A stretch of 64,000 bases of DNA, taken from assembly GCF_037975245.1 (NCBI RefSeq), contig NC_092575.1, positions 23,849,841 through 23,913,840 of the forward strand, in the 5' to 3' direction. The stretch is from Apostichopus japonicus (lineage: Eukaryota > Echinodermata > Holothuroidea > Aspidochirotida > Stichopodidae). A program made the position numbers and the translations under genes. The stretch's first letter is position 1. The number at the start of each line of letters is the position of its first letter. Of this stretch, positions 835 through 60,639 are shown in pieces. The notes beneath the pieces were generated by a model. The model saw nothing but the letters and a program-made list of their open reading frames with translations. It was not told the origin of the DNA and did not search any database.

Positions 835-1960
835 TCAGCCTGCATGAATGGATAGGTTACGATTATCATCGAAACCAAAAGTTGGTTCGAAGTTGTAGAA
901 AGAACGCGTTTGAAGCATAAAATCCCAATCAAGCCAGTCAAGAGCTTTCTCATAATCTAACAATAGGAGGGCACCTGGGGTAGAGTGGTTGTCGCAGTAA
1001 TCAATAAGGCCTAAGATAAGACGGATATTCTCACCTATAATTCTCCTAAACCAAATTTGTACTGGACTAATCAATCCTGTCAATCCTTGGAGAGAACCAC
1101 TTTGAATCGGTTGGCTAAACATTTTGCAACTATTTTATAATCCACGTTGAGTTGTAAAATAGGGCGCCAGTTTTTCAGAAAACGCTGGTCTTTTGAAGGT
1201 TTCGGTATAAGAGTAATACATGCTCTTCCCTGTTCATCGGAAATGTAGCCTTTATGAAATACATGGTTGAAAGAATTAGTTACTAATACTGCAATTTCAT
1301 TCCAAAACTGCTTGTAATATTCCGTTCGGAGTCCGTCTGAACCAGGTGATTTGTTCAAGGGCATGGAATTCAACGAACGTGTGCATTCATCGAAAGTAAT
1401 GGGTCCTTCGCAACTAGAACGCTCTTCCTCAGAGAGTTTTGTGATTTAAATTAGGATTACAATAAATGTTATACGGGTTAAAAATTGTACTCTGAGTGTA
1501 AAGGTCTTTATAAACCTTCTTAACATCATTCCTTTCCCTCTGTTACTGCCTGAATGCAAGGACAGGTTTACGAGTGAATGGTCTGAACCAACAATGAAAG
1601 ACTTGCCGAATCAGTAGTGGAATTCCTGAGATGGCTAGAGATAAGAAAAATGTCTAATCTGCAATGAAAGGAATCATCGATGTTAGAATGCCCGGTCAAA
1701 TGTTTACTTCTAGGGTTACGGTCTCTCCAAATATCAATTAAATCTAGTGTCTGTATAACATGTAACATTTTTGAGCGATATCGAAAGTTGGTGTGGAGCA
1801 ATCCACCTATTTTATCAAAATCTAAATTCCACACAGAGTTAAAATCACCTCCACATATTACAGAGTTCCAATTGTGGTTATCGATTTGACTCTCAATTGA
1901 CGAGAAGACGTCATCTCTGTAGAGGTTGTGACCATATACATTAGCTCATTCCAAATCTAT
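835..1960 (-). pseudogene. Decayed non-LTR retrotransposon (LINE) ORF2, endonuclease and reverse transcriptase fragments
   Basis: Minus-strand coding relic, 5' part at the high coordinates. Around 1,860-1,570 the translation contains GGDFN followed by LDLIDIWRDRNP and RLDIFLIS. This is the pattern of the C-terminal half of an APE-type LINE endonuclease. After a damaged stretch, 1,373-1,080 encodes NKSPGSDGL, ITLIPKP and LKNWRPI. A different frame at 1,122-835 continues with ENIRLI and LLLLDYEKALDW, where the D in LLDYEKA is the first catalytic aspartate position of the RT palm. Stops and at least one frame change break the reading frame, and the element ends abruptly near a CA-rich repeat at 835. 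The motif style matches the L1/Tx1 side of LINEs rather than CR1, but clade assignment is inference. Confidence 0.8.
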
Positions 1961-6778: not shown

Positions 6779-6847
6779 ATCAGGACTCCCGCTGCATTAA
6801 TATAATTCTCGTAAAACTAATTAAGTACATGTCAAAATGGCCACCAC
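6779..6847 (+). CDS. Proposed first coding exon (5' UTR plus start codon)
   Basis: An acceptor-like 'tttatccgcag' precedes 6,779 and a strong donor (gtaagtat) follows 6,847. The ATG at 6,837 sits in a good Kozak context (AAAATGG), has an in-frame TAA 15 bases upstream, and codes M-A-T before the donor in phase 2. This phase joins the next exon exactly, giving MATTVHTTIPRF and then the propeller. An overlapping upstream ATG at 6,830 is out of frame with that exon. If 6,779 is a real acceptor, a further non-coding 5' exon exists. The start is inferred from fit, not from transcript evidence. Confidence 0.42.
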
Positions 6848-9800
6848 GTAAGTATTATTATTTCTTTTATAAAAGATCCAAATATGTATATTCTTGGCAA
6901 TTAAACATGACAGTATAAGAAAAGTATTGATTATTTGTTTACTTTACATTCTTCTAAAAATATACAAGCAATGAATAACTCCTGAAATGGGGGAAATGGA
7001 TTAGTGTCGAGGGGGGGGGGGGGGGGGGGCGACAGGACATCACGGTGTCGTTGCATTGAGGAGGTAAAGAACGAAGCCATCTCAAGTCGCGGATAAAATG
7101 GATCCTCTCTGCATTATGTGCCACAAATTCCATTATTTTAATATGAATACGAAACAGCACCTTTCGATTGATTACTTTAATTTATCATCAAAATGGCACT
7201 TCCTGAATACACTTTCCTTAAATGTCTCAACAAAAGGACATTTTTTAAATTACACAAAATGACAGAGTAAGGTAGTTGTCCAAAATGTGCACTTCTAATC
7301 TATGAAACGGGGCAATTCTTAACGTTTTTGTTACAAAACAGGAGGAACGTGTCCCCTCGGATGCACGGCATCGGGTCAATCGCCCCTGGATATAATACAA
7401 ATTTTATAGAGATAAAAGAACATGTTTTGGTGTTAGAGTTATTAGAAGTTTAAAACAGTGGATTAACATTAAGATTTAGGATTGCACTGAGGAGCCGACG
7501 TCAGTGATCTCTGGACCCTTAAGTGAGCATTCCAGAGTTTTAGCATATTCTGAGGGTAAATATTTTTGAAACTCTGTAGCTATGGAGACCATAATATGTC
7601 TTAGAACTCAAAACTAAACTTCTGTCTGAAGTTAACCTATGAAAACTTTACACCAAGTTGACTTTGCTTAATAGCGCCATCATTTATTCATTAGCGGAGC
7701 CCTGGATAAAGTTACCTTTCTTGAATAGCTCCACCATTTACAACTTGTAGGTGTCTCACATTTTTTGGCGCTTAATGCAAATTGATTAGAATGTACTGCA
7801 TGTTGTCAACACGCAGCACTATTTGCATTAGCAAATTACATCAGTACATTCATATGATATAACGATGAATATTGAAGATAAATAAATCATATTCAAGCAA
7901 ACTAACTAAAACCTATGCAATTTCATCAATTTGACTGAAACTGCCGGCTTTTAACAGTAAGGCATATAGGCTAGTCGGTGTTGTTATATTGTGAAAGGAA
8001 TATTTTCATATCGGTACACACAGTAATTACTTCGCATTGTTTTTCTTCGTTCTGAGTTTTATTTCGATTTTAATAGGATACTTTATATGAATATTTGGTT
8101 CGGTCAATTGTTGCAATTTCTAGCTCTTTTTACTCCGCTTGCCAAATAAACATACTTGTGGCGCCATGCACTTCCTTCACGCTGATGAAACTATTGTAAG
8201 TTATGGTACTATAGGCCATAGTATCCTAATTATTAATATTAGGCCCTGAACGTCTCATTTCGAAGATTACTATGTCGGTTAATTGCTCTGGGCAATTGCC
8301 ATTGTGGTTCACTACTTTATAATTCCATTGTAATTATCAATAGATTTTTAAGATTCAGTAACCCTCATAAGGCCTAGCGATGTCGAAGTCTGAGCGCTGT
8401 TCATCAACATTCGGACGATCAAAAATCACTCTAAATTCTTCGTAACCACGGATACAAGCTCCCAACCCTGACCTTATTTTTCACTTTTTGCCTTCCACAC
8501 ACACACAGCGTACATACAACGATACCAAGATTCACTGTACAAGATGGCTACCAGGCGTTGTGCATGGACGTGCTCGATACTGGCCGTTTGGCAGTTGCTG
8601 GATGTAACCTCGGGAAAAATAACACTTTTATCGATCTGTTTATGTTTAACATTAATCCTGATTCTCAGGAAAAACCGTTATTATTGACGTCAGAGCCCTA
8701 TTTTTCTCAGGAATTTACCGAGATTGGTTTAGAATGGCGGTTTGTTTGTTTACTGGATGATCGTCTGTTTTTAACGTGTTGTAAGGATACGATATCATTG
8801 CACGATAGTAGTAGTAATGGCGGTCTGGTCAATCAAGGGACGTTTAACGGTGAAGCCTGGTGTATGACAACCAGAGATGGGTTAGTCTATGTCGGTTTAC
8901 CATCCAATGAGGTGATTGTCTTAGATGCGAGAGAATTGAGAATAGAGAAGACAATCACCTTAACAGGATTAGTAGAATTAGAATGGCCCTATGATATAAC
9001 AGTTAGTAATAATAAACTGTTTATCTGTACAGGCCTGTATGGGAGAGCTTTAATGTATAATAGTGAGGGAGAAGTAGAACAGGAATATACACACACACAG
9101 TACAGAGATGCACTGAGTATAACAGCCAGTGAAGAGAAAGGATTTATATTTATATTATGGGCTGGTGGTGGGAGTAGACAAGTTGTTGTTTACTCTCTAT
9201 CTGGGGGTCATTCTTCCATCTCTGGGGGTCATTCTTCTATCTCTGGGGGTCATATCTTGGCTTCTTTTAAAGTTCCTGATAATTCCAAGAGAATCAGGAT
9301 CAATAATAACATAAACAGATTGTTTTTGGTTACCCAGACAACTGGAGAAGTCTATGAATATCACACAGTAAGTACTGATAAATGATATATAGGCCTATGG
9401 TCAAAATTAGGAATAGTTATCACTTTTATTAAAGTAATCCTTTGATTGAAGCTCAACAAATTGGGTATCATTCTATGCGAACAAGTGACGAGAAGACACT
9501 CTTAGATGTTTTGAGATCTAGTTTGCAAAATTTAATGAAAAATAAGGGCACATTTTTCTTTGGGATTTGCTGATTCTGGTAAGGTTGTCATGGAAGTGTT
9601 TTGTACTGTCACTGTAAAATTGGTTTTCCTTATTTTCTCAATCTTCCTTGCTTCAAAAATAAACAAAATTGTTACTAGTGAATGCGGAATTTTATTAAGA
9701 ACACAACTATCACTTGTTTGTTAAGATGAAGATCAAAATGGTGGAAAAGTAAGTGCAATTTTTTTTTTAAATTTAGGCCATTGGATGCTTGTTGCCTGTT

Positions 9801-12800
9801 GCAATATTAGAGTAACACACAAAATATGGAAAATATTTCTTCTTATTTTCTGAGCTTACAAGCTGCTAATTTTGACAAAATTGTTACTAGTGAATGCGGA
9901 ATTTTATTAAGAACACAACTATCACTTGTTTGTTAAGATGAAGATCAAAATGGTGGAAAAGTAAGTGCAATTTTTTTTTAAATTTAGGCCATTGGATGCT
10001 TGTTGCCTGTTGCAATATTAGAGTAACACACAAAATATGGAAAATATTTCTTCTTATTTTCTGAGCTTACAAGCTGCTAATTTTGACAAAATTGTTACTA
10101 GTGAATGCGGAATTTTATTAAGAACACAACTATCACTTGTTTGTTAAGATGAAGATCAAAATGGTGGAAAAGTAAGTGCAATTTTTTTTTTTAAATTTAG
10201 GCCATTGGATGCTTGTTGCCTGTTGCAATATTAGAGTAACACACAAAATATGGAAAATATTTCTTCTTATTTTCTGAGCTTACAAGCTGCTAATTTTGAC
10301 AAATTTGGTATTAGTGAATGCGGAATTTTATGAAGAGCACAACTATTGCTTGTTTGTTAAGAGGGAGATCAAAATGGTGGAAAAGTAAGTGCAAAATTTT
10401 ATGAAAAATTTAGGCCATTGAATCCTAGTTGCACTGTGCAATATTAAAGCAACAGTCAAGATTTTGAAAATATTTCTTCTTATTTCCTGAGCTTACAAGC
10501 TCCTAATTTTGACAAATTTGGTATTAGTGAATGCAGAATTTTATGAAGAGCACAACTATTGCTTGTTTGTTAAGAGGGAGATCAAAATGGTGGAAAAGTA
10601 AGTGCAAAATTTTATGTAAAATTTAGGCCATTGGATACTACTTGCACTATAGAAAAAACAGACAAAATTTGGAATATATTTTGTCTTATTTTCTGAGCTC
10701 TCAAGCTGCTAATTGTTACAAATATGGTGTTAGTGAATGCAAGATATTCTCAATATTGAAATAAGTTCTATATTTTGGTGAAATTATTTCTATAAAGAAA
10801 AACTAAAAGTAAAAAATTCTATGAAAAGTGATGGAAAATGAATGTTGCCTGACATACAGTCAGACCATGTAGTCTTTATTATTATCTTTGGCTGTCAAAG
10901 TCTTCTAAAAGAACAAATTTGACAAAAATCAATGCAAATTATTGTTAAGATGTTGAAATGAGGTATATTTCAAGAAAGATTAAGGGCAATATTTTACAAA
11001 TAGGCCATACTGCTGCCATCTTGATTAGTTTTACACTAGTGCACATGTATAGCAAATACTGCAGTGATGATACCTTTATTTGATGACAGTATTTAAGTCT
11101 TGATAAAATGGCCCGACACAAGCTTCCCTCTATTTTTGGGATGTAGGGTGCTTTATTTAGGTGCACATTAGTAAAAAAAGCAGAAAAAGAAGGGGAAAAT
11201 GTGACCTTAGCCATATTTTGTCATATTTTCACATTGTCGACAGAGTTAAGACTGCAAAATTCACAAAGCCATTGAAATCATTTTCATTACTTCTGAGGAG
11301 AGAAAGTTGTAGCTAAGTACAGGCTTACTTTAATAGGGGTTGCATTGAGTCAGTTGACTGTATTTTTGTCAGTTCTCTTCAAGTGGTTCATTTCACTAAT
11401 GGCCTATGATTTCCATTACAAAGAATGTACAGTGTATGTAGTCAGTAGTCCTTAAAAGTAACATATTTGGATTAATTACTGACAATGTTAAGTACAGTAG
11501 GTACAGTAAGTAGGTATAATTTAGCTGTACTAAGTCTACACTCATAAGAAATATATATATACTGCAGTGTCAATTTGCGCCAGTAACTATTATAGACATC
11601 ACATTGTATAAGTGACGATACACAATATCCTGCTTTATTTGTTTAATGATATGCATTAAAAAGATCCCCATTCATTAGCTGTCACCAAGCACACTGTGTA
11701 ATGGATGTAATTGCTATGAAAATGGATTTCACATGATTAATGCTACCTACTGTATGCATGAGAAAGCATTACCACATGTCAACCAGTGTAAGAACAATGG
11801 TCTTCCTAGCTGTTAAAGGTATATTTGTACATGTCATCAGGCCACACCTATATACTAGTAAATTATGTCTGACAGGCTTAAGTAACCCAGGAACCTTGGT
11901 TAAAATAGCATGATCATCAGTTGATAAGTGCTCATGTTTTCAATAATTAAATGTTTTACATTCATTTTTTGTCATGAAGCTGTGTAGAGCTCATAGAGCA
12001 GTAGCTGCACATACATTTTAGTACATACACCAATCTTAAAAAGTTTTGACAGTGCAAATGGACCTTGATTATTCAGGCAATAAGCTGCAGCACATGTAGT
12101 CTAGCTGTGCAACTTACAAGCATTTAACCATACTTTCCAGTCTATAGTGCACTTCTAAGTTAGTTGTGTGTACTCATTCAGTAAATCTCTATTGCAAGAT
12201 TGTAGGATTATATAAGTGAATCTTCTGTTAGTAAAATACTGCATCAATGATTGACATAGTAAATTCATGAAAACAACACAATTAAGGAAAACGTGAGTGG
12301 TAAGAAGGGGATTAGGGAGAGGGTTATTAATGTTGTTTTAATGTTATTGACCACCTACATTGCCCAGAATAGAAGACACTTCAACTAGTTCCCACACAAA
12401 CATGGGTCACAATGTAGTGTTTATTGGCTAAATTTGGAGAATAATGTTTAACCCATCAACTATAATTTTAAGTTGGTGGGGCCAAGAATAAATCTACTGT
12501 ACAACAATCTGCCTGACACAGCGTCATGTATAGAAACATGTACCTGTACAGTCTTAAAAATCAATACAACCAATTGTTAGCTTTTAATACTTTAATTTAT
12601 TCTGAAATGTATATAAAAGATTGTTGTTAGAGGAATTCAGGTAAAACACAGTCACACAATCAACACCATAATATTTAAAGATATCCCTCCCTTGGAATGT
12701 GTTGCTGTCTCAATGCCTCAAAATTGTAAATCTATTTTTTTTTTATAGTCACCAGTATATTTATATGATTTTGTTTTTGTTGTCTGTTTTTATAGGGTGA

Positions 12801-15800
12801 CTTCTTTACATTTGATAGCCTCCTGATGCACTCAGAGTCATTGATTGAGAAAGATGACTGTCAGAAGCTTCTTGACTACCTAAAGGTTCCAGCTGAGGAG
12901 TCAGAGGACATTATTAAGAGTGATGCGCCCTTTTCTTCTCTTGTCCACCATCTCAGAAAGGCAGGGAAGGTCTCTGTTTATGACATCAGCCATTTAATGA
13001 CAGCATGCTCTGACAAAGGACTGAGTAAATTGGTGGCAGTATTGACTGTCTACCAACAAGCTAAAGGTAAGTTTATATCAGAGAGCTTAACAAGTTGAAT
13101 ATGTTGTGAATCACAAAACATTCAAACTCTTGCCCAAACAAAGAATAAAATCATTTGAGCTAATATTGTATCATTGTAAAGTACTATTTGGGGGCCTGAA
13201 GGGGATCTTGGGGGACAATCCACGCAAATGAAAGAGGAAATCCGTCCAAGTTGTTTAACTGCAATCTATTCCACAAATTGACAGCATGCACGAACCTAGA
13301 TGAACATGCAGCATACAAAAGGATACAATGAGCTGTAATGGAGCAGTAATAGAGCATTAATGGAGCAGCAATTAACAAGATGTAATGAAACATGAATAAA
13401 ACATGCTTCCTTGCAGTATAACCCGGTTAACTATTGTCCACCAACACTCTCTAATTAAATAGTTAAGAAGTAGCAACCATAGTGCATGAGAACCCCACCA
13501 TTGTAACTCTTGAATTTCCTTTGAACTGATCTGACGGTCCACAGCAAATATGTACCCAATGGACTAATAGGAAACATGATAAAATAATAACAAATAATGC
13601 AGCAGATCAGAACTGCTTCAATCACATCCTAACAGTCACAAGTGAAGAATACAAGAACATATACCCAACTTGATCATACCCCTTTAATGTGAATGTCAAG
13701 TTATGATGAATACACAGATGAACACAAAATTAATATAGGTGTATTATGATGATACTCTACGTCTACAAACCATCTGAACCATCAGGAATCTACTGTAAAG
13801 AAGTTATGATAATAACCAACAGTTGTACTAGCTATTAACACCACAACACAACCAGACACCAGCCTGCAGCTATGTCAAAAGTAACAAGCTGTGTTGAAAT
13901 CCTGACACAAATATTTACAGCAACAATCAAGAAATAAAAAGAACAAACAAAATACAATTTAAGAAGTAATTAAAGAGTAGAAGTAACAGCTTATTTCATT
14001 TAAATTCCTGGCACAAAGCTTATATTCACTGCTTATCCTAGCACAAAACTGACAAAAGTGTTACAGAACATTTTGTTTCACTATGCTGCTTTAATGCTGG
14101 CATGCACTAACTCTATTGTATTGATTAAGAAAAACAAAGATCCACATTGTACAGTACTAACTTTCCACTGCACTGCCCAGAAAAAAATACCAACATATAT
14201 CTAACTCAATATATACAGAAATTATGATTAGAGTGCAACAATGTAAGGTCTACAATATTGCTAACCTAACCTTAAAGGTACCCACTTCCTTAACACTGTG
14301 GAGATCTACCTAACACTGAACACCTCATTTTGAATGCATAGCCACATATGAACATATAATTGACAATTACTGACTCTTTAACCTTGCTATAGAACTAGGA
14401 AGTAGCATAACTGTTAAAGCAACACCATGAGCCAGCCATGCAGTTACAATGGTTATCTCAATCATATCCCTCCAATATACACTCATAAACCCAGAACTAA
14501 ACTCTTCTCTCAATGAATGAATGAACTAATTAATGTTAACAATTAAATGAAAAATTTGATGACTGGAGGCACTCTGAGCGATTGATTGGTAACAAGCTGT
14601 GTTGAACCTGGCACAAATATTTACAATATAACAATCAAAATACAATTAAAGAAGTAACTAAAGAATAGAAGTAACAGCTTATTTCATATAAATTCCTAAC
14701 ACGAAGCACATATGCACTGTTCCACCTAGCACAGAAGTGTTACAGAACATTCAGCCAGTTGGGACAATTTCCTAATGCTAATACCTCCCTCAACTGTACT
14801 CCAATATCATGCTTCAAAGCACTGGTACAAACAGTTCCTAACCTTGATCTGATAGAAACATGATATTCATATTACTCGTACTCACAATACGAGTGCTCTG
14901 AAGCGGGACATGACACTACACAGGCGCGTATCCAGGATTTTCAAACCCGGGGGGCGCGAATTACATCTAAGCGGAGCGCCACCATCGGTTGGTGCGCAGC
15001 GTACAAGAAAATTTCTTGTTTTGAAACCCCCCAGATCACCGGAAACGGCACTTCTCGGGCTTGAAATGAAAACCAGATCTACACTTTTTGCCTGAGAACC
15101 AAGTATTTCCTAATAGTTTTTTTTTTCCATCCATAACCTTTTTGAAGATTGTCAACCCGGCACACATCATGTTCGACCTGATCGCATCTCCTGTGGGTCT
15201 TTGCTTTTGTAGGTGATTCTACGTCGCGGCCCACAATACCCGTCAGCCCCACTTTTCAAGGTTTTAAGCCCCATATTTGTTCAGAATTTGAAAATTCACA
15301 TTTCTCGTGAATAAACTCACTTCAAAACATACCCATAATGTTGTACAAAATTTCATCTATGGACAACCAATATAGAAAAAACTTCCTTCAACCCCTAACA
15401 GACCGGTCAAACTTGCACGAGTAGAGGGGAGTGTGATGTAGAATGTTGGTCAGAAATTTTCGAAAATTCAGCCACAGGTAATTTACAAATGTGTAAAAAT
15501 ATTAAAACCTGTTATAACGGCAATTATAAAACTTGGTTGAAGGAAATGAAAAAATAGCAGATATTTCCTTCAACCGAACACTACACAAATAAACGTAGGA
15601 GGCGCGGCGGCAGTGGCGGAGCTAGGGGTATTGGTCAGTAGTGGCGAGAATGGTCTGAAGGGGCGCTTTCGACACTATCTAAGCGGAGCGCCACCACTGG
15701 TTGGCGCGTAGCGTACAGAAAATTTTTGAGTAAAGATACTCCCTAGATCGCAGGAAATGACCCTTTCCGGGCCTGGCTAATTTGCAGATAAACGAAGAAT

Positions 15801-27800: not shown

Positions 27801-30800
27801 AAAATGAATCTCAACATCGCCATCAATTCATCATCCAAACTAGAGCAATTAATATCAAACGTGCAGTAAACCCCTGTTAAAGGTGTGGTGTTTGGATACA
27901 AAACTCCTACAACTTTGAACTGACAGAGGGTTAAATTAACATACATGGTTTAGGAGGAGCATGGCCCTGTATGGTTGGTATGTTTTTATAGTGTATTGTA
28001 TGATGTCCAGATGTATACGTTGCTGGGGTCAACAAGCAAATAACATAATAATCATAATAAGCATATCAACATCTCCAATGTCTTTTTTGTAAAATGTTAT
28101 AGAAAATAAAAGCCTCACCTAATTCCTCAATATGATGTTTTGACTTGACGGTCATCAAGTGAGGTAGATCACACCAGGATCCTAATATCTGAAGAGTATT
28201 TATGATTTTGAAATCATTTTATGTTAAATATCATCAAAAGGCTGTTGCAATGCTTTAAAAAGGTGCCAGTAATGTTGCTATGCTAACACTGGGGCTTGTT
28301 GTGTATATGGGCAGTTACATCGACAGTACTTTAAAAAGCAATTAAATTTATTCATATTCCACACAAATTATAGTTTATTCAGCTATAGAACTGATTTTAA
28401 AGAAAAGTATTTTGTTGTTTTATATCAATGCAATACAAATCAATCTAATAATCAACAGATAACTAGGAAAATGTGATCTCATCTATTGTCAGTTTATCAA
28501 TTGTCTTCTTGTGCTGAGTGTGATCCTTAACTCTATTTTATCCTTTTATTTTCATTTCAGCTGATTACGGCAGATTAATGGTCAATGTTGCCGATGATCT
28601 TACCCTAGACAGCACTCTGAAATTAGCGACTCTGTTTGGTCTACCACCGGAAGAAACTGATATGTTACGCAGGGTTTCTCTGATAGAGACACCAGGAATC
28701 ACTCTAATTAACTTCATGAAGACACGAAACATCATCAATATGTACGATGTCACTAACCTACAAAAGGGTTTGGCTCATATTCAGCTAAACCGAACAGATG
28801 AAACCCTTTTAGCTCCATATCAGTCTAAAGTTGACTCCTTTCAGTTTGAAGAATACCAAGCACCAGAACTGCTTGCCTGGCCTGGTAAGAATGGATACAA
28901 CGTTGTAATCAGAATACATAAAACAAAAAATATGCAGTACAGAAAAATCTCTAGAAATGTGTGTGAGTCTGGGGTTAATATTCTGCTTTCAGGCAATATG
29001 TTATTTTGAACTAGTAATTATAATGATGTTTGTATGGTTAAAGTAATTATAAGTGGATCTTTTGACCATTTATATGTTCCCATTTGGTTTGTTTCTTTAT
29101 AGTAAAAAGATTGAAAATACAAAACTTTAGTTCCCAAAGATTAGCCAATATTTGTAGGATTCATTTGAGCCATCTGATCACTCTCAGAGAACGATGCTAG
29201 ATTCTTTGATATTCCCGTAGTCTGCTGCCACTCGTCAAATTCTCTATCAACATAAAGCTTGTGTTGCATATCTATTACATTTTGTATTATGATTCCTTCA
29301 ATAATACCTCTTTCATAAATCAATTGCAGGGCTTTTGTATTGATGTAGAAATTTTAATTAATGTGGCTCAGTATGGCAATTTTTTTTTCCATGTCAAGGC
29401 TTCAGTTAATAGTGTTTGTGTTTCCATTAATATTCTATTTTTAGTTGATGAATCAACTCCATCACAAGGTTCTGATGAAAGAGAGGAATATCATGACCAT
29501 AGTCAGGAGACTTTGATGGAGAGAAGCGAGAAAGAGGAACTACCAAAGCAAAGAAAAGATTCACAAATACTTGAAATGAGGCAACATTATTCATACATTG
29601 AACACAGGATAAAGTATGAAGGTGGAACTATTAGCATCATGGGGGTACATCTGACTATTCCTGAAGACGCTGTATCCTTCGATCATGTAATTGCTGTTAA
29701 AGTGATCTATGATCCTGACATACACCTCCCTGGAAGTGTTCATAGGGGCAGAATGACACCGCTACTAAAACTAGAGCCAGAAGGACTCGCCCTCAACAAG
29801 CCAGCCCAGCTGACTATTCCTCACTCGGCTATTATCCCTGAGCCAGATCGACATGATGTTATGATCTTCACTGGTCTGAAAGATAAAGAAACTTCACTAG
29901 AAGGTAAAGATGGAGACCAATACACACTTTAAATGCAAATTGTTGAATGTACCAGGAGATGTACAATGAGTTATATGATGGAATCAGTACTGTAAAATAT
30001 GTCTTAGTTAATAAGCTCTTGATATTAACTCTAATTAAGATTACCAAGTAATTTAGTTTGTATAATATTACTTACTATAGGTGAAATAACTTGGACCGAA
30101 GAGAAATCTATGGATTGGAAACTAGACCCGGAGAAGATCAGTCTTGATATTAACATCCTGAGCTACGTCTTTGTTAATTTAGTCAGCCAAGAAACAGAAC
30201 AGAAGCATATATTCCGTATTGTTCCATTTATCGATGGGATACTTGATGCCAAAGATGATGTCTTAATAACTGTTTGTTTCTGTAAGGACAGTGATGAAGA
30301 GTTCAAGGTGAGGATAATCTCCTGTTACCATGGTGATATATGTACCAGTTTGAGATCAGTTCTGTTTCATATTGTGAATTTTAAGTCGGTTACTGGCATT
30401 GTACTCTCTTTCATGATTTGTACAGTGACTATTATCGTGTTTCACTGACAAATTATGAAGTGATTTGTTAAGAGCACATTGCTTAGGTCAAAATTTCATT
30501 TTGTAACAAATTATGTGGTTCCTCAAAAACATCCACAAGACGCATAACAAGTACTTAGATGATTTGATACCCGCATGCAACATTAGTAATGTGAGCAAAT
30601 TAAGGAAACTGAGATGATGTTACTTGCTAAAGCAGTATTGACTTCTCTGTACATAATGAAGGCACAACAAGTTGCATAATTTAACATCTGCTCGGTTTTT
30701 GGTTTCAATAATAATTGTAACCTTTGCATTCATAATGGCATATGTGTGCACGTTTGTGACGCCCAGCTTGTAAACAGGATATCTCAAGAAGAAAAGCTTG

Positions 30801-33800
30801 GACAAACCTCATATTTAGTGTGTAAAAGCACCACATTGAGTACAATAACGTATTGTTTTTTTTTTTGAGGTCAAAGGTCATTGGGGTCATCAGAGGTCAA
30901 ATTGTATAAACCTTGTTAACATGATATCTCAATTTTGGAAGCTTGGGCAGATCTCATACTTGGTATGAAGGTGTATAATATTGATTAAAAGAAGCATATT
31001 GATTTTGGTGGAAGTCAAAGTTCATTTGGGTGCAACAGGTCAAATCGTGAAGCCTTGTAAACATGATATGGCAAGGGAACATTGGACAGAACATATATTT
31101 GGTTTGTAGATGTACCATATGAAATTTAAGGAGCCTATATTACTTTTGGTGGGCAGAGGTCAGTGCTTGTTTGAGTTTACCAGGGGTAAAATTGTGAAAT
31201 CATGTTTTATGCAATATTGCAACAAGACATATATCATATAAGTTGATGTATCTATCACTTTTAGTACAAGAAGCCTGTTGAGGTCAAAGGTCATTTCAGG
31301 ATAGCCTGTGTCATTGTGATTTATTGTTTGTCTCATCACACTGCTTTCACTGTATTACTCAGATCAATTATGTTTTTCACCCTCACTATACATTACGTCA
31401 GATTCATGAAGAAAACTGCTGTTACATCATCGAAACCACAATGCATATATGCTTTCTGGTTCTCTTTTGAATTTACTTTGCCATGTTCTTATGTTTTAGT
31501 TGCTGTTAGAGGACCACCAGTCCAAACTCAGTTTAGGAAACTATTCAACATTTCAAGTTACCCGGACATTGAATGATGGCAGAGATTCTGCTTCTTACAT
31601 CGATCTGATGATGTCATCACCCGGTGATAGTTACCATCTGATGAAGGAAGAATCAACAAAGGTTTGTAATAAGCAATGCTTTTAAAGTTTGTCTTCTAAC
31701 ATTACAAGACTTGTAGTTAAGGATTGGTTTCCTGAAGTGAACCAAAATATTGAAGTGGTTAGAATTTCTGCCTTACAACTACTAGGGTACTGGTTAAAAA
31801 AAAACCACCAGGGACCAAAATCTATGCAAAACTTCTGCTGTGCAGTGTTGTTGAGCAGAATCTTGCGTAGGTTGTACTTCCAGTAAGTGAATCATTCAAT
31901 AATTGATAATTTATGGTCCGATATTCTTTCTCAAGGTTTCTCAAAAAGCTTCAGTCACCATGGCTGCACTTTGGTGATGATGAATGAATGGGGTTGTCTT
32001 TAATTGGATAACCTCCCTTTGTGTTTGAGGAAATGTTCAGATGCTGTGGCAGTGTCAGTCATCAGATTGGGATGTTGATTAAGTGGCTGTTCTGTGAGCA
32101 GGAATGATAAAGAACACGTTCTGCCTGCTTAGTAATTCTCTGAACACTCATCAAAAGTTACGTGAATATTCATAGCTTGAATATATTACCAGAGGGTTCC
32201 TACTCCATGGAACAAAGTAAACCTATTAAAATGTTGTTATGGAACTACAATCTTCACCATCTGCACATGAAATCTAAGGATTTGTACATGACTAGATGTC
32301 TTGGTTCCTTACCAGCATTTCCTTAATTCTTATATCTTATATGTGGCACAGTTTCTTTGAATACTTATCATGCATTCTCATCCTCAGTATATTGATCTTC
32401 TAATATCTTTTATCCATTAGCATGTAGACATTGATCACCTGTGTGCTGCCAGTAGAGTCTCTCATCAGTTCAGACTTAAAAGAAACAATGATGGAGATAC
32501 TACCATGGTTGATGTGAAGTTAAAAGTATCACAACATGAAAAGAACCAGACAGCCCTCATCCTCCAATCAAAGGTGAGTTATTTTTGCTGATTGTCTTCC
32601 AGCGGCATCTTCTCTCTTCTGATTTTTTCTTTGTTTATTCATGTCCTGCCGGGTGGAAGTCTTGCAGCTGTTTGCAAGCTGATCTAAAAATGAACTCTTT
32701 TGTGTCAATGAATAAAGTCATTGCTGTAACTTAATTATAGTTTATTCCATGTCACCTTCTCTCATGGATCCTTATCTTTATAATATTGTGTACTATGCAT
32801 AATTGCAATTCAATTAATCTTTTGTTAAATTGCTATTGTTTTGCCGAATCTTTCATGTTGCTTTGTAAATAATGAGTAACTCAAAATGCAAAGAATTTGC
32901 TGAAGAAGTGTACTTATCACCTGTGTGTTATTACATGCACAGGTCAACAGTGATGGGAAACTGTTTTGTATGTATTAGGTACCAATTAATGAATAATGCC
33001 TAGATAATAGCTATCACCAGTCCTTAACTTTGGGATTCCACACATTTATTATGTGTTGTTCCATGTTTGTTTCAGCCCTATTTTTCTACATTATGTTCTT
33101 ACTTTAAATCTAGTCATTCACATGGTGTGCACTCTTGTGTGTTGAACATACTTACATTTACAGTTCCCATTACTCATATTTTTTTTGGTTTAATTCTTCA
33201 GGTGAACAACATTCTCTTATCTCCAAAAACCCAGGAAACTCTTTTTAGAGGACTGCACCCAGGTGAGTATTCAAGTGGAAGTGGAACAGATGCGTGAACT
33301 TTGAAAGTCCACCCTGGCCTGTATCTAAATGTAGTTGGCACAAAAAATAATGATATTTATCCTATACATACACCAGGCAACTGTGTATTAGTGGAGATGA
33401 AAAAGTAAGCACACACAGAGAACATGGTGAGTGTCTACGTAGACCTGAAAAGGTAGAAGCATTCGGTTTTAGCAGTAGACACACCTGAGTGTTACTTATA
33501 TCAACTTAGTATTGGGAAACATTTTAATCACATAAAAACTTCTGATTGAAACAAAGTACATCTTGATGCTGAACCCGAAAGATTTCTTCTATGTCCCACT
33601 TGCAAACTTTCATTTTTAATTAGTGTGCTCAATTCCCTCAAAGCAACTATGGAATTGAAGCTGTATACAAGACTAGAATTGATCGAAAAGATAAGGGCTT
33701 AAAGCTGAAAAGTTGTACATAAGTTGTGGACAGTATACTTAACCAATTTAAATGAGTGCACGCACCAGAGGTGTGACTTCCATACCAACCTTCCACATGC

Positions 33801-35167
33801 AGGTTTGCATGCTTCTTGTGGGCCAGTAATGTACTTGTGCATGTTAGGTGTGAACATTGCTCATTGTTCAAACTTGGCAGTCAATTAGCATAGGCACTCT
33901 AATGTTTATATGTGATATCTAGTCTTAGCTATACTTTTTTAAATGTAAAGTGGATGTCCTCACTTTCAGATTTACCCAAATATGAACAGTTGAGAGGAGA
34001 CATTGCAAAGCATCTAGAGAAACAACATTGTCTAAAGCTAGGCGTGTATTTTAAACTCACGCCAGTAGAAAATGAAACAATTCAGACAGCAGCAGAATCT
34101 GGAAAGATGCTGATGAAAATATTGGATGAAAGAGAGCTCATCATGCCAGAGAGAATGATCAGACTGTATGAAGGATTGAAAGCTATTGACTTTGATAAGG
34201 TGGCAAGACTGGTGCTGGAGTACATTGATACATCACAGGAGAAGAATGGAAAGGAAAACCAAGGAGAAAAAGATAAAAAGAAAATGGTTTGTATTTTGTA
34301 AACACTGTTAAGACTTTGACATTTTATGCTTGTAATTGTCAAAACAAAGTCACTTTGCATAAAAGCAAGATCTTAGAATATTGGCAGGTCTAGTACAGAG
34401 TGTGATTCTGATATGAGAAATTAGTATTTTTGCTGTCATGCAAGTCTGTTTGAAAAGTCATCGTTTAATAATTGTAAGAGTTTCTTTCTTATTCAAAGTT
34501 ACGTTTTTAGACATTAAGTTTAGACTATTCACTGAAGCTAAATCAAATGCAGTTATAAGTTTTCTATCTTCATGAGAGTATTATTAAAGAAAATACAATT
34601 TTATGACCAATTTGTAATATCTCATCATTATTTCAGGTTACCATTGCAGAGAAACAGGAACCGAAGTTGCCAGTAAATTTCAAAATTTTGATACAAGAGG
34701 GATACACGAGACTGGATGTCCAAAGAGCCTTGAAATTGTCTCTTGGAAAACTGGACTTGGGAAGACGGATTTTGCTACTTGCTAAGGAAGAGGATGGTAA
34801 GGATACCCTCTGTATTCAGCTACGCGGGTATTTCTTTTATATTCCTTCCGGATTTAATCAATTTCACAATGTTGTCTCACAATTCTGGATATTGTTCGCA
34901 TGAAACAGGTTCGGTTTAATTCACTTTATGTAGAATAGTGTATTTAACATATTTGCATTTTCCTTTTCTTTCAACCTTACAGCCATCATCAACTCTTTAA
35001 ATCATCAAAAGCAGAACTTATCAGAACATCTTGATGTAGACCAATCTACCCTGCTGGCAAAAAATTCACTGATACTCTATCTTCCACGAAGATCACAGAA
35101 TTGGAAAATGTTCTTACGGAACAAAGAAATGAAGAATGTGCAAAACTTGTCAGAGATTTTAGACTGA
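6837..35167 (+). CDS. Multi-domain propeller / death-effector-like / coiled-coil / ZU5-UPA protein (15-exon model)
   Basis: Joined model: 6837-6847, 8509-9367, 12796-13066, 20604-21655, 25719-25856, 26237-26321, 28561-28884, 29445-29903, 30081-30307, 31500-31661, 32421-32573, 33202-33262, 33970-34286, 34637-34796, 34983-35167. All junctions are GT-AG and every splice phase agrees, giving about 1,487 residues. Domains: beta-propeller about 1-290; death-effector-like fold 291-380; helical 14-residue repeats 381-731, continuing to about 777; acidic linker 778-805; second death-effector-like fold 806-913; ZU5 about 965-1105; UPA-like about 1105-1250; third death-effector-like fold 1268-1373; short UBA-like segment about 1385-1427. 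No signal peptide or membrane segment is seen. ZU5-UPA with a death fold is known from UNC5, PIDD and ankyrin, where it holds the death fold closed. A cytosolic sensor or scaffold in apoptosis or immunity is my inference. Whether the parts are one transcript is not proven; a split into two genes between exons 3 and 6 is the main alternative. Confidence 0.7.
8509..9367 (+). CDS. Exon 2: beta-propeller domain
   Basis: 859-base exon with acceptor after a pyrimidine-rich tract and CA run (…cacacacag) and donor gtaagtac; it ends in phase 0. It encodes about 286 residues with repeating blade-like strands, for example GLVYVGLP...VIVLDAREL, NKLFICTG...ALMYNSEGE and INRLFLVTQTTGEVYEY. This resembles NHL/WD-type propellers, and the length suits a complete six- or seven-blade ring. 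No RING or B-box precedes it, unlike TRIM-NHL proteins. A 21-base in-frame triplication (SGGHSSI) at 9,199-9,255 lengthens a loop. A propeller in this position probably recognises a ligand; that role is inference. Confidence 0.8.
9199..9255 (+). repeat. 21-bp in-frame tandem repeat in the propeller exon
   Basis: Two full copies and one partial copy of a 21-base unit beginning tctgggggtcat encode SGGHSSI SGGHSSI SGGHI. It lies between two blade strands and keeps the frame, so it is probably an expandable surface loop. Confidence 0.9.
9590..10745 (+). repeat. 212-bp tandem array in intron 2
   Basis: The phrase 'gttactagtgaatgcgg' or its variant 'ggtattagtgaatgc' recurs at about 9,671, 9,883, 10,094, 10,307, 10,521 and 10,727, a period of about 212 bases. 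The first three units are almost identical; the later ones diverge with distance, including 'ttaagatgaagatc' changing to 'ttaagagggagatc'. Each unit contains 'ggtggaaaagtaagtgc', which matches a 5' splice-site consensus, and a later 'aatttaggcc'. Confidence 0.9.
10746..12795. other. Remainder of intron 2, no gene seen
   Basis: AT-rich intronic sequence ending in a T-rich stretch and the acceptor tttttatag before 12,796. I see no further coding segment; splice phases of the flanking exons match without one. Confidence 0.5.
12796..13066 (+). CDS. Exon 3: first death-effector-like domain
   Basis: 271 bases, entering in phase 0 and leaving in phase 1, with acceptor tttttatag and donor gtaagttt. 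The roughly 90 encoded residues are all predicted helical: DDCQKLLDYLKVPAEES, then FSSLVHHLRKAGKVSVYDI, then HLMTACSDKGLSKLVAVL. The spacing and the late 'G-LSKLVAVL' helix resemble the death-effector subfamily, in which the domain usually fills one exon. A death domain or CARD is less likely but not excluded. The domain would provide homotypic binding to another death-fold partner. Confidence 0.62.
13067..14754 (+). repeat. Intron 3, ~700-bp diverged tandem duplication
   Basis: The segment from 13,880 ('aacaagctgtgttgaa') to 14,580 starts again at about 14,588 and shares long phrases such as 'agaagtaacagcttatttca' and 'gtgttacagaacatt'. The second copy is interrupted at 14,755 by another element and resumes at about 17,151, where 'ctgctttaatgctggcat' and 'tgaatgcatagccacatat' match 14,090-14,350. 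No gene is seen in 13,067-20,603. Confidence 0.75.
14755..17150. mobile_element. Probable composite insertion with inverted ends in intron 3
   Basis: The left end reads 'ccagttgggacaatttccta' and the right end, on the other strand, reads the same with one extra T. The two ends split the second ~700-bp duplicate unit, so this block arrived after the duplication. Inside are three copies of the G-run dispersed repeat (about 14,916-15,076, 15,610-15,980, 16,340-16,665), a G17 tract at 15,944-15,960 and a pyrimidine-rich stretch at 16,940-17,080. No transposase is visible. No clear target duplication was found, so class is unassigned. Confidence 0.5.
17742..18576. mobile_element. TTAA-flanked MITE carrying a nested insertion
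   Basis: Begins TTAAAGGCATTGAAGACT and ends with its imperfect inverse, AAGTCTTCAAACCCTTTAA, with TTAA at both edges. TTAA targets and a TTAAAGG start resemble Kolobok/T2-type or piggyBac-type MITEs. A second copy lies at 40,836-41,203. Compared with it, this copy is split at position 17,983/18,452 by a 468-bp element. Confidence 0.75.
17984..18451. mobile_element. 468-bp GGTAGC element with 4-bp target duplication
   Basis: Starts GGTAGCCTACGCC and ends GGAGTATGCCACC; the ends are inverted repeats matching at 10 of 13 bases. It is flanked on both sides by AGCA, and the empty site in the sister MITE at 40,836-41,203 reads 'gatggtagcaagctg' with one AGCA. This is direct evidence of insertion with a 4-bp duplication. 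A second copy is at 45,064-45,536. It has no coding capacity; the superfamily is not assigned. Confidence 0.85.
19385..20290 (+). repeat. GGTCA-rich dispersed repeat, diverged subfamily
   Basis: Starts with a hairpin, 'ggttccttgctttatc' pairing with 'aaaaggaacc', continues through a GT-rich stretch and repeated 'cggtcatgtgatc...aggtcacca' phrases, and ends near 'cccttgggctcttgtt'. The structure parallels the 22.6-25.5 kb copy but the internal sequence differs. Confidence 0.7.
20604..21655 (+). CDS. Exon 4: 14-residue helical repeat (coiled coil or single helix)
   Basis: 1,052 bases, entering in phase 1 after tttgtttcag and leaving in phase 0 at a weak donor (gttaga). After a short helical lead-in, DSKLTKKVLKDQLKES, there are about 21 units of TEEERQQLxxxLKx, with variants TGR, NGR, KDT and RDT. 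Each unit is 42 bases and equals two heptads. Leucines sit 4 and 10 residues apart, as in a coiled coil. The very high E/K/R content also fits a stable single helix. A block of several units (NQL, RDT, KDT, NGR order) appears twice, marking a secondary duplication. It would set the distance between domains or drive oligomerisation. Confidence 0.85.
21656..22559. other. Start of intron 4, no gene seen
   Basis: AT-rich intronic DNA with no coding signal or recognisable element. Confidence 0.4.
22560..25480 (+). repeat. Large GGTCA-rich repeat array in intron 4
   Basis: Begins with a hairpin ('ttccttgccgaaggcagaaggaa') and a GT-rich stretch, then about fifteen diverged units of 130-160 bases. 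A typical unit reads '...gtaaacacgatatctcaagaagggaag...accacattgagta...aggtcaaaggtcatttggggtcac'. A sub-element from 23,516 to 25,298 has inverted ends, GGTTTCGATGA and TCATCGAAACC. Many units contain AGGTCAAAGGTCA, a direct repeat of AGGTCA with one base between. Confidence 0.85.
25719..25856 (+). CDS. Exon 5: helix continuation
   Basis: 138 bases, phase 0 at both ends, acceptor acatgacag and donor gtaagt. It encodes DLEEAKSSLRAKKDELVKSQ and continues to EALNQQQL, an uninterrupted charged helix that extends exon 4 and closes the coiled-coil region at about residue 777. Confidence 0.75.
26237..26321 (+). CDS. Exon 6: acidic linker
   Basis: 85 bases, phase 0 in and phase 1 out, acceptor tattttcag and donor gtagga. 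Encodes a Ser/Glu-rich linker, ASSASVTEEETQLEEGE and onwards, between the helix and the next folded domain. Short and low in complexity, so it rests mainly on the matching phases. Confidence 0.6.
26322..28560. other. Intron 6, no gene seen
   Basis: Contains a G-rich tract near 26,460-26,490, a degenerate GGTCA-type segment at about 26,550-26,780, and a 15-base perfect palindrome, ccgtgctaagcacgg, at about 27,281. No coding segment was found. Confidence 0.5.
28561..28884 (+). CDS. Exon 7: second death-effector-like domain
   Basis: 324 bases, phase 1 at both ends, acceptor tttcatttcag and donor gtaaga. The helical pattern is clear: MVNVADDLTLDSTLKLATLF, GLPPEETDMLRR, TLINFMKTRNIINMYDV and NLQKGLAHI. 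This resembles death-effector folds and is similar in layout to exon 3, including the 'I..YDV/YDI' step before the last helices. A symmetric phase-1 exon is easy to shuffle, which fits domain duplication within the gene. Confidence 0.65.
29445..29903 (+). CDS. Exon 8: ZU5 domain, first part
   Basis: 459 bases, phase 1 at both ends, acceptor ctatttttag and donor gtaaag. A charged linker of about 55 residues leads into the ZU5 signature: EGGTISIMGVHLTIPEDAV, then TPLLKLEPEGL, then PAQLTIPHSAI. These match the GG...GV.L.IPE.A and L.P.V...P.G......L.IPH.A landmarks of ZU5 in UNC5, ankyrins and PIDD. I am confident of the family. Confidence 0.88.
30081..30307 (+). CDS. Exon 9: end of ZU5 and start of UPA-like region
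   Basis: 227 bases, phase 1 in and phase 0 out, acceptor cttactatag and donor gtgagg. GEITWTEEKS and SYVFVNLV correspond to the last strands of ZU5. FRIVPFIDGILDAKDDVL then resembles the start of a UPA domain, which follows ZU5 in UNC5, PIDD and ankyrins. Confidence 0.78.
30690..31440 (+). repeat. GGTCA-rich repeat, intron 9
   Basis: Starts with a diverged 'ggtttcaataataattgtaacctttgcattca' type end (compare 23,516), repeats the 'ggtcaaaggtcattggggtc' and 'gtaaacatgatat' phrases, and ends at 'catcgaaacc' near 31,430. It is the same element type with inverted ends as the sub-element in intron 4. Confidence 0.75.
31500..31661 (+). CDS. Exon 10: UPA-like region
   Basis: 162 bases, phase 0 at both ends, acceptor tatgttttag and donor gtttgt. 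It encodes LLLEDHQSKLSLGNYSTF through to MKEESTK, a mixed strand/helix pattern that continues the UPA-like region. The assignment rests on position after ZU5 and on secondary-structure pattern, as UPA is poorly conserved in sequence. Confidence 0.65.
32421..32573 (+). CDS. Exon 11: UPA-like region, last part
   Basis: 153 bases, phase 0 at both ends, acceptor atccattag and donor gtgagt. Encodes HVDIDHLCAAS, HQFRLKRNN and VDVKLKVSQHEKNQ, consistent with the final beta strands of a UPA fold. Confidence 0.65.
33202..33262 (+). CDS. Exon 12: short linker
   Basis: 61 bases, phase 0 in and phase 1 out, acceptor taattcttcag and donor gtgagt. Encodes VNNILLSPKTQETLFRGLHP, linking UPA to the third death-effector-like domain. 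Its small size is offset by two good splice sites and matching phases. Confidence 0.6.
33970..34286 (+). CDS. Exon 13: third death-effector-like domain
   Basis: 317 bases, phase 1 in and phase 0 out, acceptor cactttcag and donor gtttgt. About 85 helical residues: YEQLRGDIAKHLEKQHCLKL, LTPVENETIQTA, GKMLMKILDEREL and LYEGLKAIDFDKVARLVLEY. Order and spacing match the six-helix death-effector fold. The 'AIDFDKVARL' helix sits where classical DEDs carry RxDLL, but the motif itself is altered. A lysine/glutamate-rich tail follows. Lying directly after ZU5-UPA, it occupies the place of the death domain in UNC5 and PIDD. Confidence 0.75.
34637..34796 (+). CDS. Exon 14: UBA-like segment
   Basis: 160 bases, phase 0 in and phase 1 out, acceptor cattatttcag and donor gtaagg. 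FKILIQEGYTRLDVQRALKL followed by DLGRRILLL resembles a ubiquitin-associated (UBA) three-helix bundle, in which a 'GY/GF' loop and 'RAL' helix are typical. The resemblance is by eye and the segment is short. Confidence 0.55.
34983..35167 (+). CDS. Exon 15: C-terminal exon, possible frameshift
   Basis: Acceptor ttacag, phase 1, matching exon 14. The enforced frame reads AIINSLNHQKQNLSEHLDVD and stops at TGA 35,165-35,167. From an A6 run at 35,059-35,064 another frame becomes open as far as 35,310 and looks more protein-like (ITELENVLTEQRNEECAKLV). A one-base loss in the A run could explain this, as real decay, polymorphism or sequencing error. No AATAAA signal was seen just downstream. Confidence 0.55.
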
Positions 35168-60620: not shown

Positions 60621-60639
60621 TATTGGTCATATACTCTAA

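What the first reader, a model, noticed from the sequence alone, without database searches (positions are those of the whole stretch)
6837..35167. Propeller + three death-effector-like folds + long helix + ZU5-UPA in one protein
Fifteen exons with consistent GT-AG sites and phases join into one frame of about 1,487 residues. ZU5 is clear; the propeller and long helix are clear; the three death-fold domains and UPA are by pattern. I know of ZU5-UPA joined to a death domain in UNC5, PIDD and ankyrins, but not of a protein that adds a propeller, a repeat helix and several death-effector-like domains. This suggests a ligand-sensing, oligomerising, autoinhibited death-fold platform, a plausible undescribed immune or apoptosis receptor.
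Basis: partly seen in the sequence, partly recalled or inferred. Interest (0 to 1): 0.92.

Follow-up and report, generated by a model that had tools for sequence, protein, structure and literature searches.

The report
Sea cucumber propeller–death-effector sensor family
The window holds one slightly truncated member of a large family of sea cucumber genes that join a fast-changing propeller-shaped sensor to several cell-death signalling domains, which looks like an inherited repertoire of immune receptors.

Summary
The assembly matches Apostichopus japonicus. The three "death folds" are homologous to each other and are death-effector domains by profile. ZU5 is certain; UPA is not confirmed; a UBA-like segment was missed.

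The gene belongs to a tandem family: 49 of 57 propeller exons are followed in order by DED2 and ZU5, with a further clade on C12. Paralogs have a second ZU5 and a fourth DED; the window copy lost the one and damaged the other, so its last ~30 residues are out-of-frame remnant.

The propeller changes fast (dN/dS 0.91-1.14) while DED2 is conserved (0.21-0.28), and changes concentrate in the same two loops of the six blades. Best reading: a germline repertoire of cytosolic propeller sensors with DED output. No expression data; structure prediction never ran.

The parts
6837..6847 (+). exon 1, start codon, MAT-; donor GTAAGT
   Evidence: homologous ATG and donor in one paralog; exon 2 starts with GTA/GTG, not ATG, in the window and the 8 paralogs printed
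8509..9367 (+). exon 2, six-bladed beta-propeller (residues 4-290), variable loops
12796..13066 (+). exon 3, DED1 (residues 291-380)
20604..21655 (+). exon 4, long charged helix of 14-residue repeats; the script counted 21 repeat motifs here and 26, 23, 14 and 8 in four of five paralogs (it found none in the fifth)
25719..25856 (+). exon 5, end of the coil
   Evidence: 91-96% identical in 5 of 5 paralogs; splice sites 5 of 5
26237..26321 (+). exon 6, acidic linker
   Evidence: found in 4 of 5 paralogs
28561..28884 (+). exon 7, DED2 (residues 806-913)
   Evidence: dN/dS 0.21-0.28
29445..29903 (+). exon 8, linker and ZU5a
   Evidence: acceptor not found at the same place in 4 of 5 paralogs
30081..30307 (+). 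exon 9, UPA-like segment (identity as UPA not shown)
   Evidence: dN/dS 0.22-0.24; UPA tests negative
31500..31661 (+). exon 10, UPA-like segment
32421..32573 (+). exon 11, UPA-like segment
33202..33262 (+). exon 12, short linker exon
33970..34286 (+). exon 13, DED3
34637..34796 (+). exon 14, UBA-like segment
   Evidence: 6 of 6 PDB matches are CBL/CBL-B UBA, E 0.1-1.6, not significant alone
34856..34867 (+). deletion junction: in five paralogs ZU5b and further exons lie here (exons 14 and 15 are about 4.0-8.5 kb apart there, 186 bp here)
34983..35167 (+). exon 15, 5' part of DED4, then a deletion, frameshift remnant and early stop

Best explanation
The window gene is one copy of a large tandem family of cytosolic sensors in the sea cucumber genome. 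The full layout in five paralogs is: propeller, DED1, repeat helix, DED2, ZU5a, UPA-like segment, DED3, UBA-like segment, ZU5b, UPA-like segment, DED4. Shown here: the layout, the family, DED and ZU5 identity, lack of a strong transmembrane segment, fast change in a ring of propeller loops, and constraint on DED2. Inferred: the ring binds varied non-self or stress ligands; binding, with the helix bringing chains together, frees the DEDs from the ZU5 modules; the DEDs then nucleate filaments that recruit DED adaptors or DED-caspases to trigger cell death or inflammatory signalling; the UBA-like segment may tie this to ubiquitin. ZU5 probably acts as a non-cleaving clamp, as in UNC5, because the cleavage motif is absent. 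The window copy lost ZU5b and most of DED4 and may be a reduced variant or a decaying member.
For: Family and order: 49 of 57 propeller exons followed by DED2 and ZU5a, 42 of those 49 with ZU5b within 12 kb, 52 of 52 ZU5a exons with DED2 under 3 kb upstream; on C12, 44 of 55 propeller rows have ZU5 downstream, against 0 of 55 on the opposite strand and 14 of 55 upstream. Exon-by-exon conservation. DED: 8 of 11 PDB matches of the profile are DEDs, best E 0.0038; Pfam DED in 5 of 14 members, best 2.1e-4. Selection: 30 propellers, dN/dS 1.14; 26 DED2, 0.28; 325 pairs, 0.91 against 0.21. Ring: changes recur at two spots per blade, 2 of 5000 random rotations as extreme; ring dN/dS 1.89 against 0.73 elsewhere, 9 of 10 nominal sites in it. 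No 19-residue window above a hydropathy mean of 1.24. Caspase and DED exons lie near each other in several places.
Against: No transcript, protein, ligand or partner was examined. Selection counts come from a home-made parsimony method. Only 10 of 284 codons pass p<0.05 uncorrected, no more than chance would give, so no single site is proven; 20 codons look constrained. Whether 1.14 exceeds 1 was not tested, and the pairwise mean is below 1. Gene conversion between tandem copies is not excluded, and synonymous change is also higher in the ring (2.15 against 1.27). The ring was defined on the same data; in hold-out, offsets trained on blades 1-3 kept the excess of changes in blades 4-6 (9.5 against 3.0) but not a higher dN/dS (1.58 against 1.52). 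Blades and loops were assigned by sequence pattern, not structure. UPA unconfirmed. The window copy itself is truncated.
Confidence: 0.6

Rival explanations
1. The excess of amino-acid change in the propeller loops is relaxed constraint plus gene conversion and local mutation or alignment noise among tandem copies, not selection for ligand diversity.
For: Synonymous change is also raised in the ring (2.15 against 1.27); only 10 of 284 codons are nominally positive, uncorrected; propeller and DED2 synonymous distances correlate only r=0.42, consistent with some exchange; one hold-out direction showed no dN/dS gain.
Against: dN exceeds dS in the ring (1.89), 9 of the 10 nominal sites fall in it, and the pattern recurs over six blades. 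The 29 fetched paralog propellers are all open, although 2 of the 51 copies at 61% identity or more have a stop and were not fetched.
Confidence: 0.25
2. The window copy (and its close neighbour at C15:23.75 Mb) is a decaying pseudogene of an otherwise functional family.
For: ZU5b lost, DED4 deleted and frameshifted, both lesions shared with the neighbour; window exon 13 dN/dS 0.84 against 0.42 among the other paralogs, exon 14 dN 0.159 against 0.062.
Against: Exons 1-14 are fully open with GT-AG splice sites; exons 10-12 are 99-100% identical in DNA between the two copies. The window-neighbour dN/dS of 0.71 over exons 7-13 rests on few changes and decides nothing.
Confidence: 0.35
3. The family serves self-recognition (allorecognition, gamete or tissue compatibility) or a neuronal role rather than defence.
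For: Tandem families with diversifying loops also serve self-recognition (general knowledge); ZU5 is shared with UNC5, and an UNC5-like gene, L001, is in the same genome.
Against: No transmembrane segment; DED output domains fit cell-death signalling (general knowledge).
Confidence: 0.12
4. Two adjacent genes, a propeller protein and a DED-ZU5 protein, were joined by mistake.
For: No cDNA was available.
Against: Exon 2 donor and exon 3 donor at the identical place in 5 of 5 paralogs, exon 3 acceptor in 4 of 5; the early Met of exon 3 is not conserved among the six copies; the linkage holds in 49 of 57 places.
Confidence: 0.03

Closest known systems
DED/TRADD-N lineage-specific expansions of marine invertebrates (Kaur et al. 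2021, PMC8195603; sections 10 and 11 and passages read)
   Same: Large species-specific families joining DEDs to variable sensor repeats, including WD40 propellers in amphioxus whose variability is noted there, and UPA-ZU5 or FIIND fusions in the DEDD2 clade
   Different: No TRADD-N match here at Pfam sensitivity; propeller N-terminal; three or four DEDs, repeat helix, one or two ZU5 modules; no loop-by-loop selection pattern in the sections read
UNC5 / PIDD / ankyrin ZU5-UPA proteins
   Same: ZU5 homologous to UNC5 (hhalign probability 96.9, E 1.8e-10); death fold after the ZU5 module; two ZU5 domains as in PIDD (PMC3210808 says cleavage follows each of PIDD's ZU5 domains)
   Different: DED instead of DD; propeller instead of LRR, Ig or ankyrin repeats; UPA not confirmed
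NLRP1 / CARD8 FIIND proteins
   Same: ZU5 module placed before a death-fold recruiter
   Different: No SF/S motif; no NACHT or CARD hit in the Pfam scans; DED instead of CARD
cFLIP, vFLIP, PEA-15 type DEDs
   Same: Profile matches
   Different: Distant (E 0.004-1); found with propeller and ZU5, no caspase-domain hit in the model

Membership tests
Death effector domain | Profile match to DED | tested here: met
   8 of 11 PDB matches are DEDs, best E 0.0038; PF01335 in 5 of 14 members, best E 2.1e-4; the window's three copies alone give no Pfam DED hit, and with those three alone two bacterial HTH chains outranked the DEDs
Death effector domain | Six-helix bundle | not testable with these tools
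   Structure prediction answered busy in all 15 calls made
ZU5 | PF00791 above cut-off | tested here: met
   34.2 bits against 21; hhalign to UNC5 E 1.8e-10
ZU5-UPA supramodule | UPA domain after ZU5 | tested here: inconclusive
   0 of 6 Pfam hits; hhalign probability 0.2; the ZU5-UPA comparison aligned only ZU5; pairwise score below the shuffle mean
PIDD / NLRP1 / CARD8 autoproteolytic ZU5 | HF/S or SF/S motif at the end of ZU5 | tested here: not met
   No HFS or SFS in the 1,487 residues; an Ile-Phe-Thr at 1054-1056 lies earlier in ZU5; Leu-Asp at 1088-1089 is the by-eye counterpart of UNC5b's Leu-Asp (PMC3210808); none seen by eye in the ZU5b rows
Beta-propeller | Repeated four-strand blades (NHL/WD) | tested here: met
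   NHL in 2 of 10 members, best E 8.7e-4, other propeller models weaker; variable positions recur over six blades; no PDB sequence match up to E 5
TRADD-N expansions of Kaur et al. | TRADD-N domain beside DED | tested here: not met
   No such match in Pfam scans at E up to 1 or 10; a distant version could be missed
Lineage-specific tandem family | Many clustered copies of one layout | tested here: met
   whether other echinoderms have it was not tested
UBA | UBA profile match | tested here: inconclusive
   6 of 6 PDB hits are CBL UBA but E 0.1-1.6; no Pfam hit

The most novel reading that the evidence does not exclude
Sea cucumbers carry a germline repertoire of on the order of a hundred cytosolic receptors. 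In these, a six-bladed propeller presents a hypervariable ring of about twelve loops on one face, as a binding surface, coupled to three or four DEDs and one or two non-cleaving ZU5 clamps: a kind of immune sensor distinct from NLRs, TLRs and TRADD-N proteins.
Probability: 0.48. Interest if true: 0.87.

Novelty: new variant of a known kind. Interest (0 to 1): 0.76.

Why it matters
Invertebrates meet pathogens without antibodies, and the recognition side of their large death-domain repertoires is mostly unknown. Here both ends of one candidate system can be read from DNA: a propeller whose variable positions recur blade by blade, and a conserved DED output. That makes recognition directly testable (which face, which ligands) and gives a new context for ZU5 modules outside UNC5, PIDD and NLRP1, in an animal that is farmed and suffers disease.

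Tried and rejected
Rejected: a single odd protein (it is a family). Two joined genes. Autocleaving ZU5. Pairwise and single-sequence DED evidence against FADD was not significant and was replaced by profiles. The CHMP7 winged-helix hit of exon 3 (E 2e-4, below its cut-off; 3 of 14 members) was set aside because DED hits cover more members (5 of 14) and the PDB profile favours DED. Two IMG/VR scans found no relatives. PHROGs gave only weak hits. The UNC5b-UPA pairwise test was not above shuffles. A recombination-aware selection test, and the C12 clade as independent replication, were wanted but not run.

Rows dropped: 57 of the 128 propeller rows were used (51 at 61% identity or more and 6 at 42-48%; C12, C7, C6, C17 rows and second pieces of split exons left out), 57 of 95 DED2 rows (diverged ones left out), and 52 ZU5a and 48 ZU5b rows of the 114. 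In one search, 30 propellers were analysed (window and 29 chosen for lack of stops) and 284 of 286 codons tested. In one search, 55 of 57 C12 propeller rows and the 69 C12 ZU5 rows were used. These lists were typed by hand from the tables.

Full report
What was checked. The window is a 64-kb stretch of a eukaryotic chromosome. The own-genome tool places it at G000:C15:23,849,841-23,913,840 in an assembly of 671,581,487 bases and 35 contigs. These figures, with contig lengths seen in passing (C16 46.04 Mb; C23 18.20 Mb), match the Apostichopus japonicus assembly (671.60 Mb, 34 scaffolds, 23 pseudo-chromosomes of 18.21-46.02 Mb; PMC10344927, passages read). The species is an inference from size, not a label.

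Gene model. Five related genes were fetched (a sixth, more distant one from C12 matched only exons 2, 3 and 7 weakly). Exons 2 to 15 were found in order and on one strand in the five, exon 6 in 4 of 5. Both splice sites are at the identical place in 5 of 5 for exons 2, 5, 7, 9, 10, 11 and 13. Weaker are the acceptors of exon 3 (4 of 5), exon 8 (1 of 5), exon 14 (0 of 5, shifted in frame in 4) and exon 15 (3 of 5), and the donors of exon 4 (2 of 5) and exon 12 (4 of 5). Exon 2 starts with GTA or GTG, not ATG, in the window and in the eight paralogs printed, so the start lies upstream. The one fetched paralog region that reaches far enough has the same ATG and GTAAGT donor about 1.8 kb upstream of exon 2, with a 9-base longer exon in the same phase.

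Domains. ZU5 is secure: 34.2 bits against a cut-off of 21, and hhalign probability 96.9, E 1.8e-10 against an alignment of an UNC5-like protein from this genome and human UNC5B (the human ZU5 letters were recalled). The three death-fold exons are homologous to each other: 0, 13 and 0 of 2000 shuffles reach the observed scores. A profile of the three alone leaned to DEDs (9 of 12 PDB matches at E up to 10, best DED 0.034, but two bacterial HTH chains ranked first at 0.012). With paralogs and the fourth copy added (14 sequences), the top 8 of 11 PDB matches are DEDs of cFLIP and vFLIP, best E 0.0038, and Pfam DED hits 5 of 14 members, best E 2.1e-4. So they are most likely DEDs, though distant ones; the window's own three give no Pfam DED hit alone. 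The segment after ZU5 is not shown to be UPA: 0 of 6 members hit Pfam at E up to 10, hhalign against the UPA of UNC5b gave probability 0.2, and the longer comparison aligned ZU5 only. Exon 14 resembles a UBA domain: all 6 PDB matches are CBL or CBL-B UBA, E 0.1-1.6. Exon 4 encodes repeats of 14 residues; the script counted 21 motifs in the window and 26, 23, 14 and 8 in four of the five paralogs, and missed the fifth. No 19-residue window is hydrophobic enough for a membrane helix (highest mean 1.24), so the protein is probably cytosolic.

The family. The propeller exon has 128 matches in the genome (136 of 150 candidates scored), the DED2 exon 95 (150 of 199 scored) and the ZU5 exon 114 (150 of 190 scored). 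PF00791 has 150 matches over cut-off, all that were scored of 204 candidates. These counts are lower bounds. Using 57 propeller exons on C15, C19, C23, C16 and C11 (51 at 61% identity or more, 6 at 42-48%), 49 are followed on the same strand within 45 kb, with no other propeller between, by DED2 and then ZU5a. 42 of those 49 have a second, diverged ZU5 exon within 12 kb; the window and six others do not in the listed matches. 52 of 52 ZU5a exons have DED2 less than 3 kb upstream. On C12, 44 of 55 more distant propeller rows (28-46% identical) have a ZU5 exon downstream on the same strand, against 0 of 55 on the opposite strand and 14 of 55 upstream.

The complete form and what the window lost. 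In the five paralogs, ZU5b and further exons lie between exons 14 and 15, which are about 4.0-8.5 kb apart there and 186 bp apart in the window. Exon 15 of the paralogs encodes a fourth DED. In the window the sequence joins at about 34,856-34,867, and DED4 has an internal deletion of 81-84 bases, by arithmetic on the alignments, and a frameshift. A neighbour copy (C15, 23.75 Mb) shares both changes. Whether these two copies are reduced variants or decaying genes is open; dN/dS between them over exons 7-13 is 0.71 on few changes.

Selection. Between the window and five paralogs, dN/dS is 1.05 for the propeller, 0.35 for DED2 and 0.22 for exon 9; among the five paralogs alone 0.81, 0.25 and 0.24. 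For 26 genes with both exons (325 pairs), mean dN/dS is 0.91 for the propeller and 0.21 for DED2; dN exceeds dS in 35% against 1% of pairs. Counting changes on a tree (parsimony, home-made) gave 1.14 for 30 propellers and 0.28 for 26 DED2 exons. Site by site, 10 of 284 propeller codons are nominally positive at p<0.05 and 20 constrained; for DED2 it is 0 and 10 of 107. Ten of 284 is not more than chance would give, so the case rests on the overall rate and on where the changes fall, not on single sites.

Where the changes fall. When the six blades are lined up on their core strand, amino-acid changes pile up at the same two places: just before the first strand, and about eight residues after the anchor (mean 21.9 changes at offset +8). 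Rotating each blade at random reached the observed concentration in 2 of 5000 trials. Block shuffles reached the summed autocorrelation at lags 38-46 in 0 of 5000 and the single highest lag in 114 of 5000. By general knowledge of propellers (recalled, not from a call) these are the D-A and B-C loops, which share the top face. Those 65 positions have dN/dS 1.89 against 0.73 at the other 219 and hold 9 of the 10 nominal sites. Against this: synonymous change is also higher there (2.15 against 1.27), and the positions were chosen on the same data. With offsets trained on half the blades, the excess of changes held in both directions (9.5 against 3.0, and 7.1 against 2.4), but dN/dS rose in only one (1.78 against 0.64; the other 1.58 against 1.52). 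Gene conversion in tandem arrays was not modelled.

How it likely works. The anatomy fits a cytosolic receptor: variable propeller face as sensor, repeat helix as spacer or oligomerising rod, DEDs as output, ZU5 as clamp. Cleavage as in PIDD, CARD8 or NLRP1 needs an HF/S or SF/S motif at the end of ZU5 (PMC3210808, passages and section 6 read). The window protein has no HFS or SFS anywhere; at the corresponding place it reads Leu-Asp, as UNC5b does (placement by eye). The genome also has caspase-domain exons near DED exons on the same strand, at C16 1.86-1.91 Mb, C17 33.75 Mb, C23 17.47 Mb and (DED below cut-off) C22 23.09 Mb, so candidate partners exist; no interaction was tested.

What is known. 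Kaur et al. 2021 (PMC8195603; passages and sections 10 and 11 read) describe large species-specific families in marine animals joining DED and TRADD-N to many domains, including WD40 propellers in amphioxus with variable sequence, and fusions to FIIND and UPA-ZU5; they report 18-23 DEDD2-clade copies in echinoderms. The present family shares that logic but shows no TRADD-N at Pfam sensitivity and has another order and content. Nine paper searches (listings seen) showed no title or abstract that describes this family; the library lacks most subscription papers, and supplementary tables were not open to me, so this is not proof of absence. A 2026 preprint on holothurian gene families (PMC13228809) has no occurrence of 'ZU5', 'death' or 'propeller' in the text held.

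Verdict. The important facts lie outside the single gene: a large tandem repertoire, and a sensor face that changes while DED2 does not. Structure prediction would have been a direct test of the fold but was never available.

Noticed in passing
window 835-1945 (-): Fragments of a LINE-type reverse transcriptase and endonuclease on the minus strand upstream of the gene (recognised by eye).
   Followed up: no
window 9663-10740, 48030-48691, 57571-58577, 60633-62500: Tandem arrays with units of 213, 142-300, 146-152 and 179 bases.
   Followed up: no
window 36000-64000: No second gene was recognised by eye in the downstream 28 kb; open frames are short and repeat-like. They were not scanned against families.
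   Followed up: partly
G000:C15:23747000-23756999 (L039): Neighbour copy with 94-100% amino-acid identity in exons 7-13 sharing the loss of ZU5b and the damaged DED4.
   Followed up: yes
G000:C16 10.2-11.1 Mb and 1.86-1.91 Mb: Clusters of canonical DED exons; caspase exons lie among those at 1.86-1.91 Mb.
   Followed up: no
G000:C1 13.8-14.4 Mb: Cluster of caspase-domain exons.
   Followed up: no
L001, G000:C15:2415467-2418715: ZU5 protein in one 711-residue open frame with UNC5-like make-up (by eye), carrying His-Phe-Thr near the end of ZU5.
   Followed up: partly
window 12796-13066: DED1 scores E 2e-4 with the CHMP7 winged-helix model, below its cut-off; 3 of 14 DED-alignment members match it.
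   Followed up: partly
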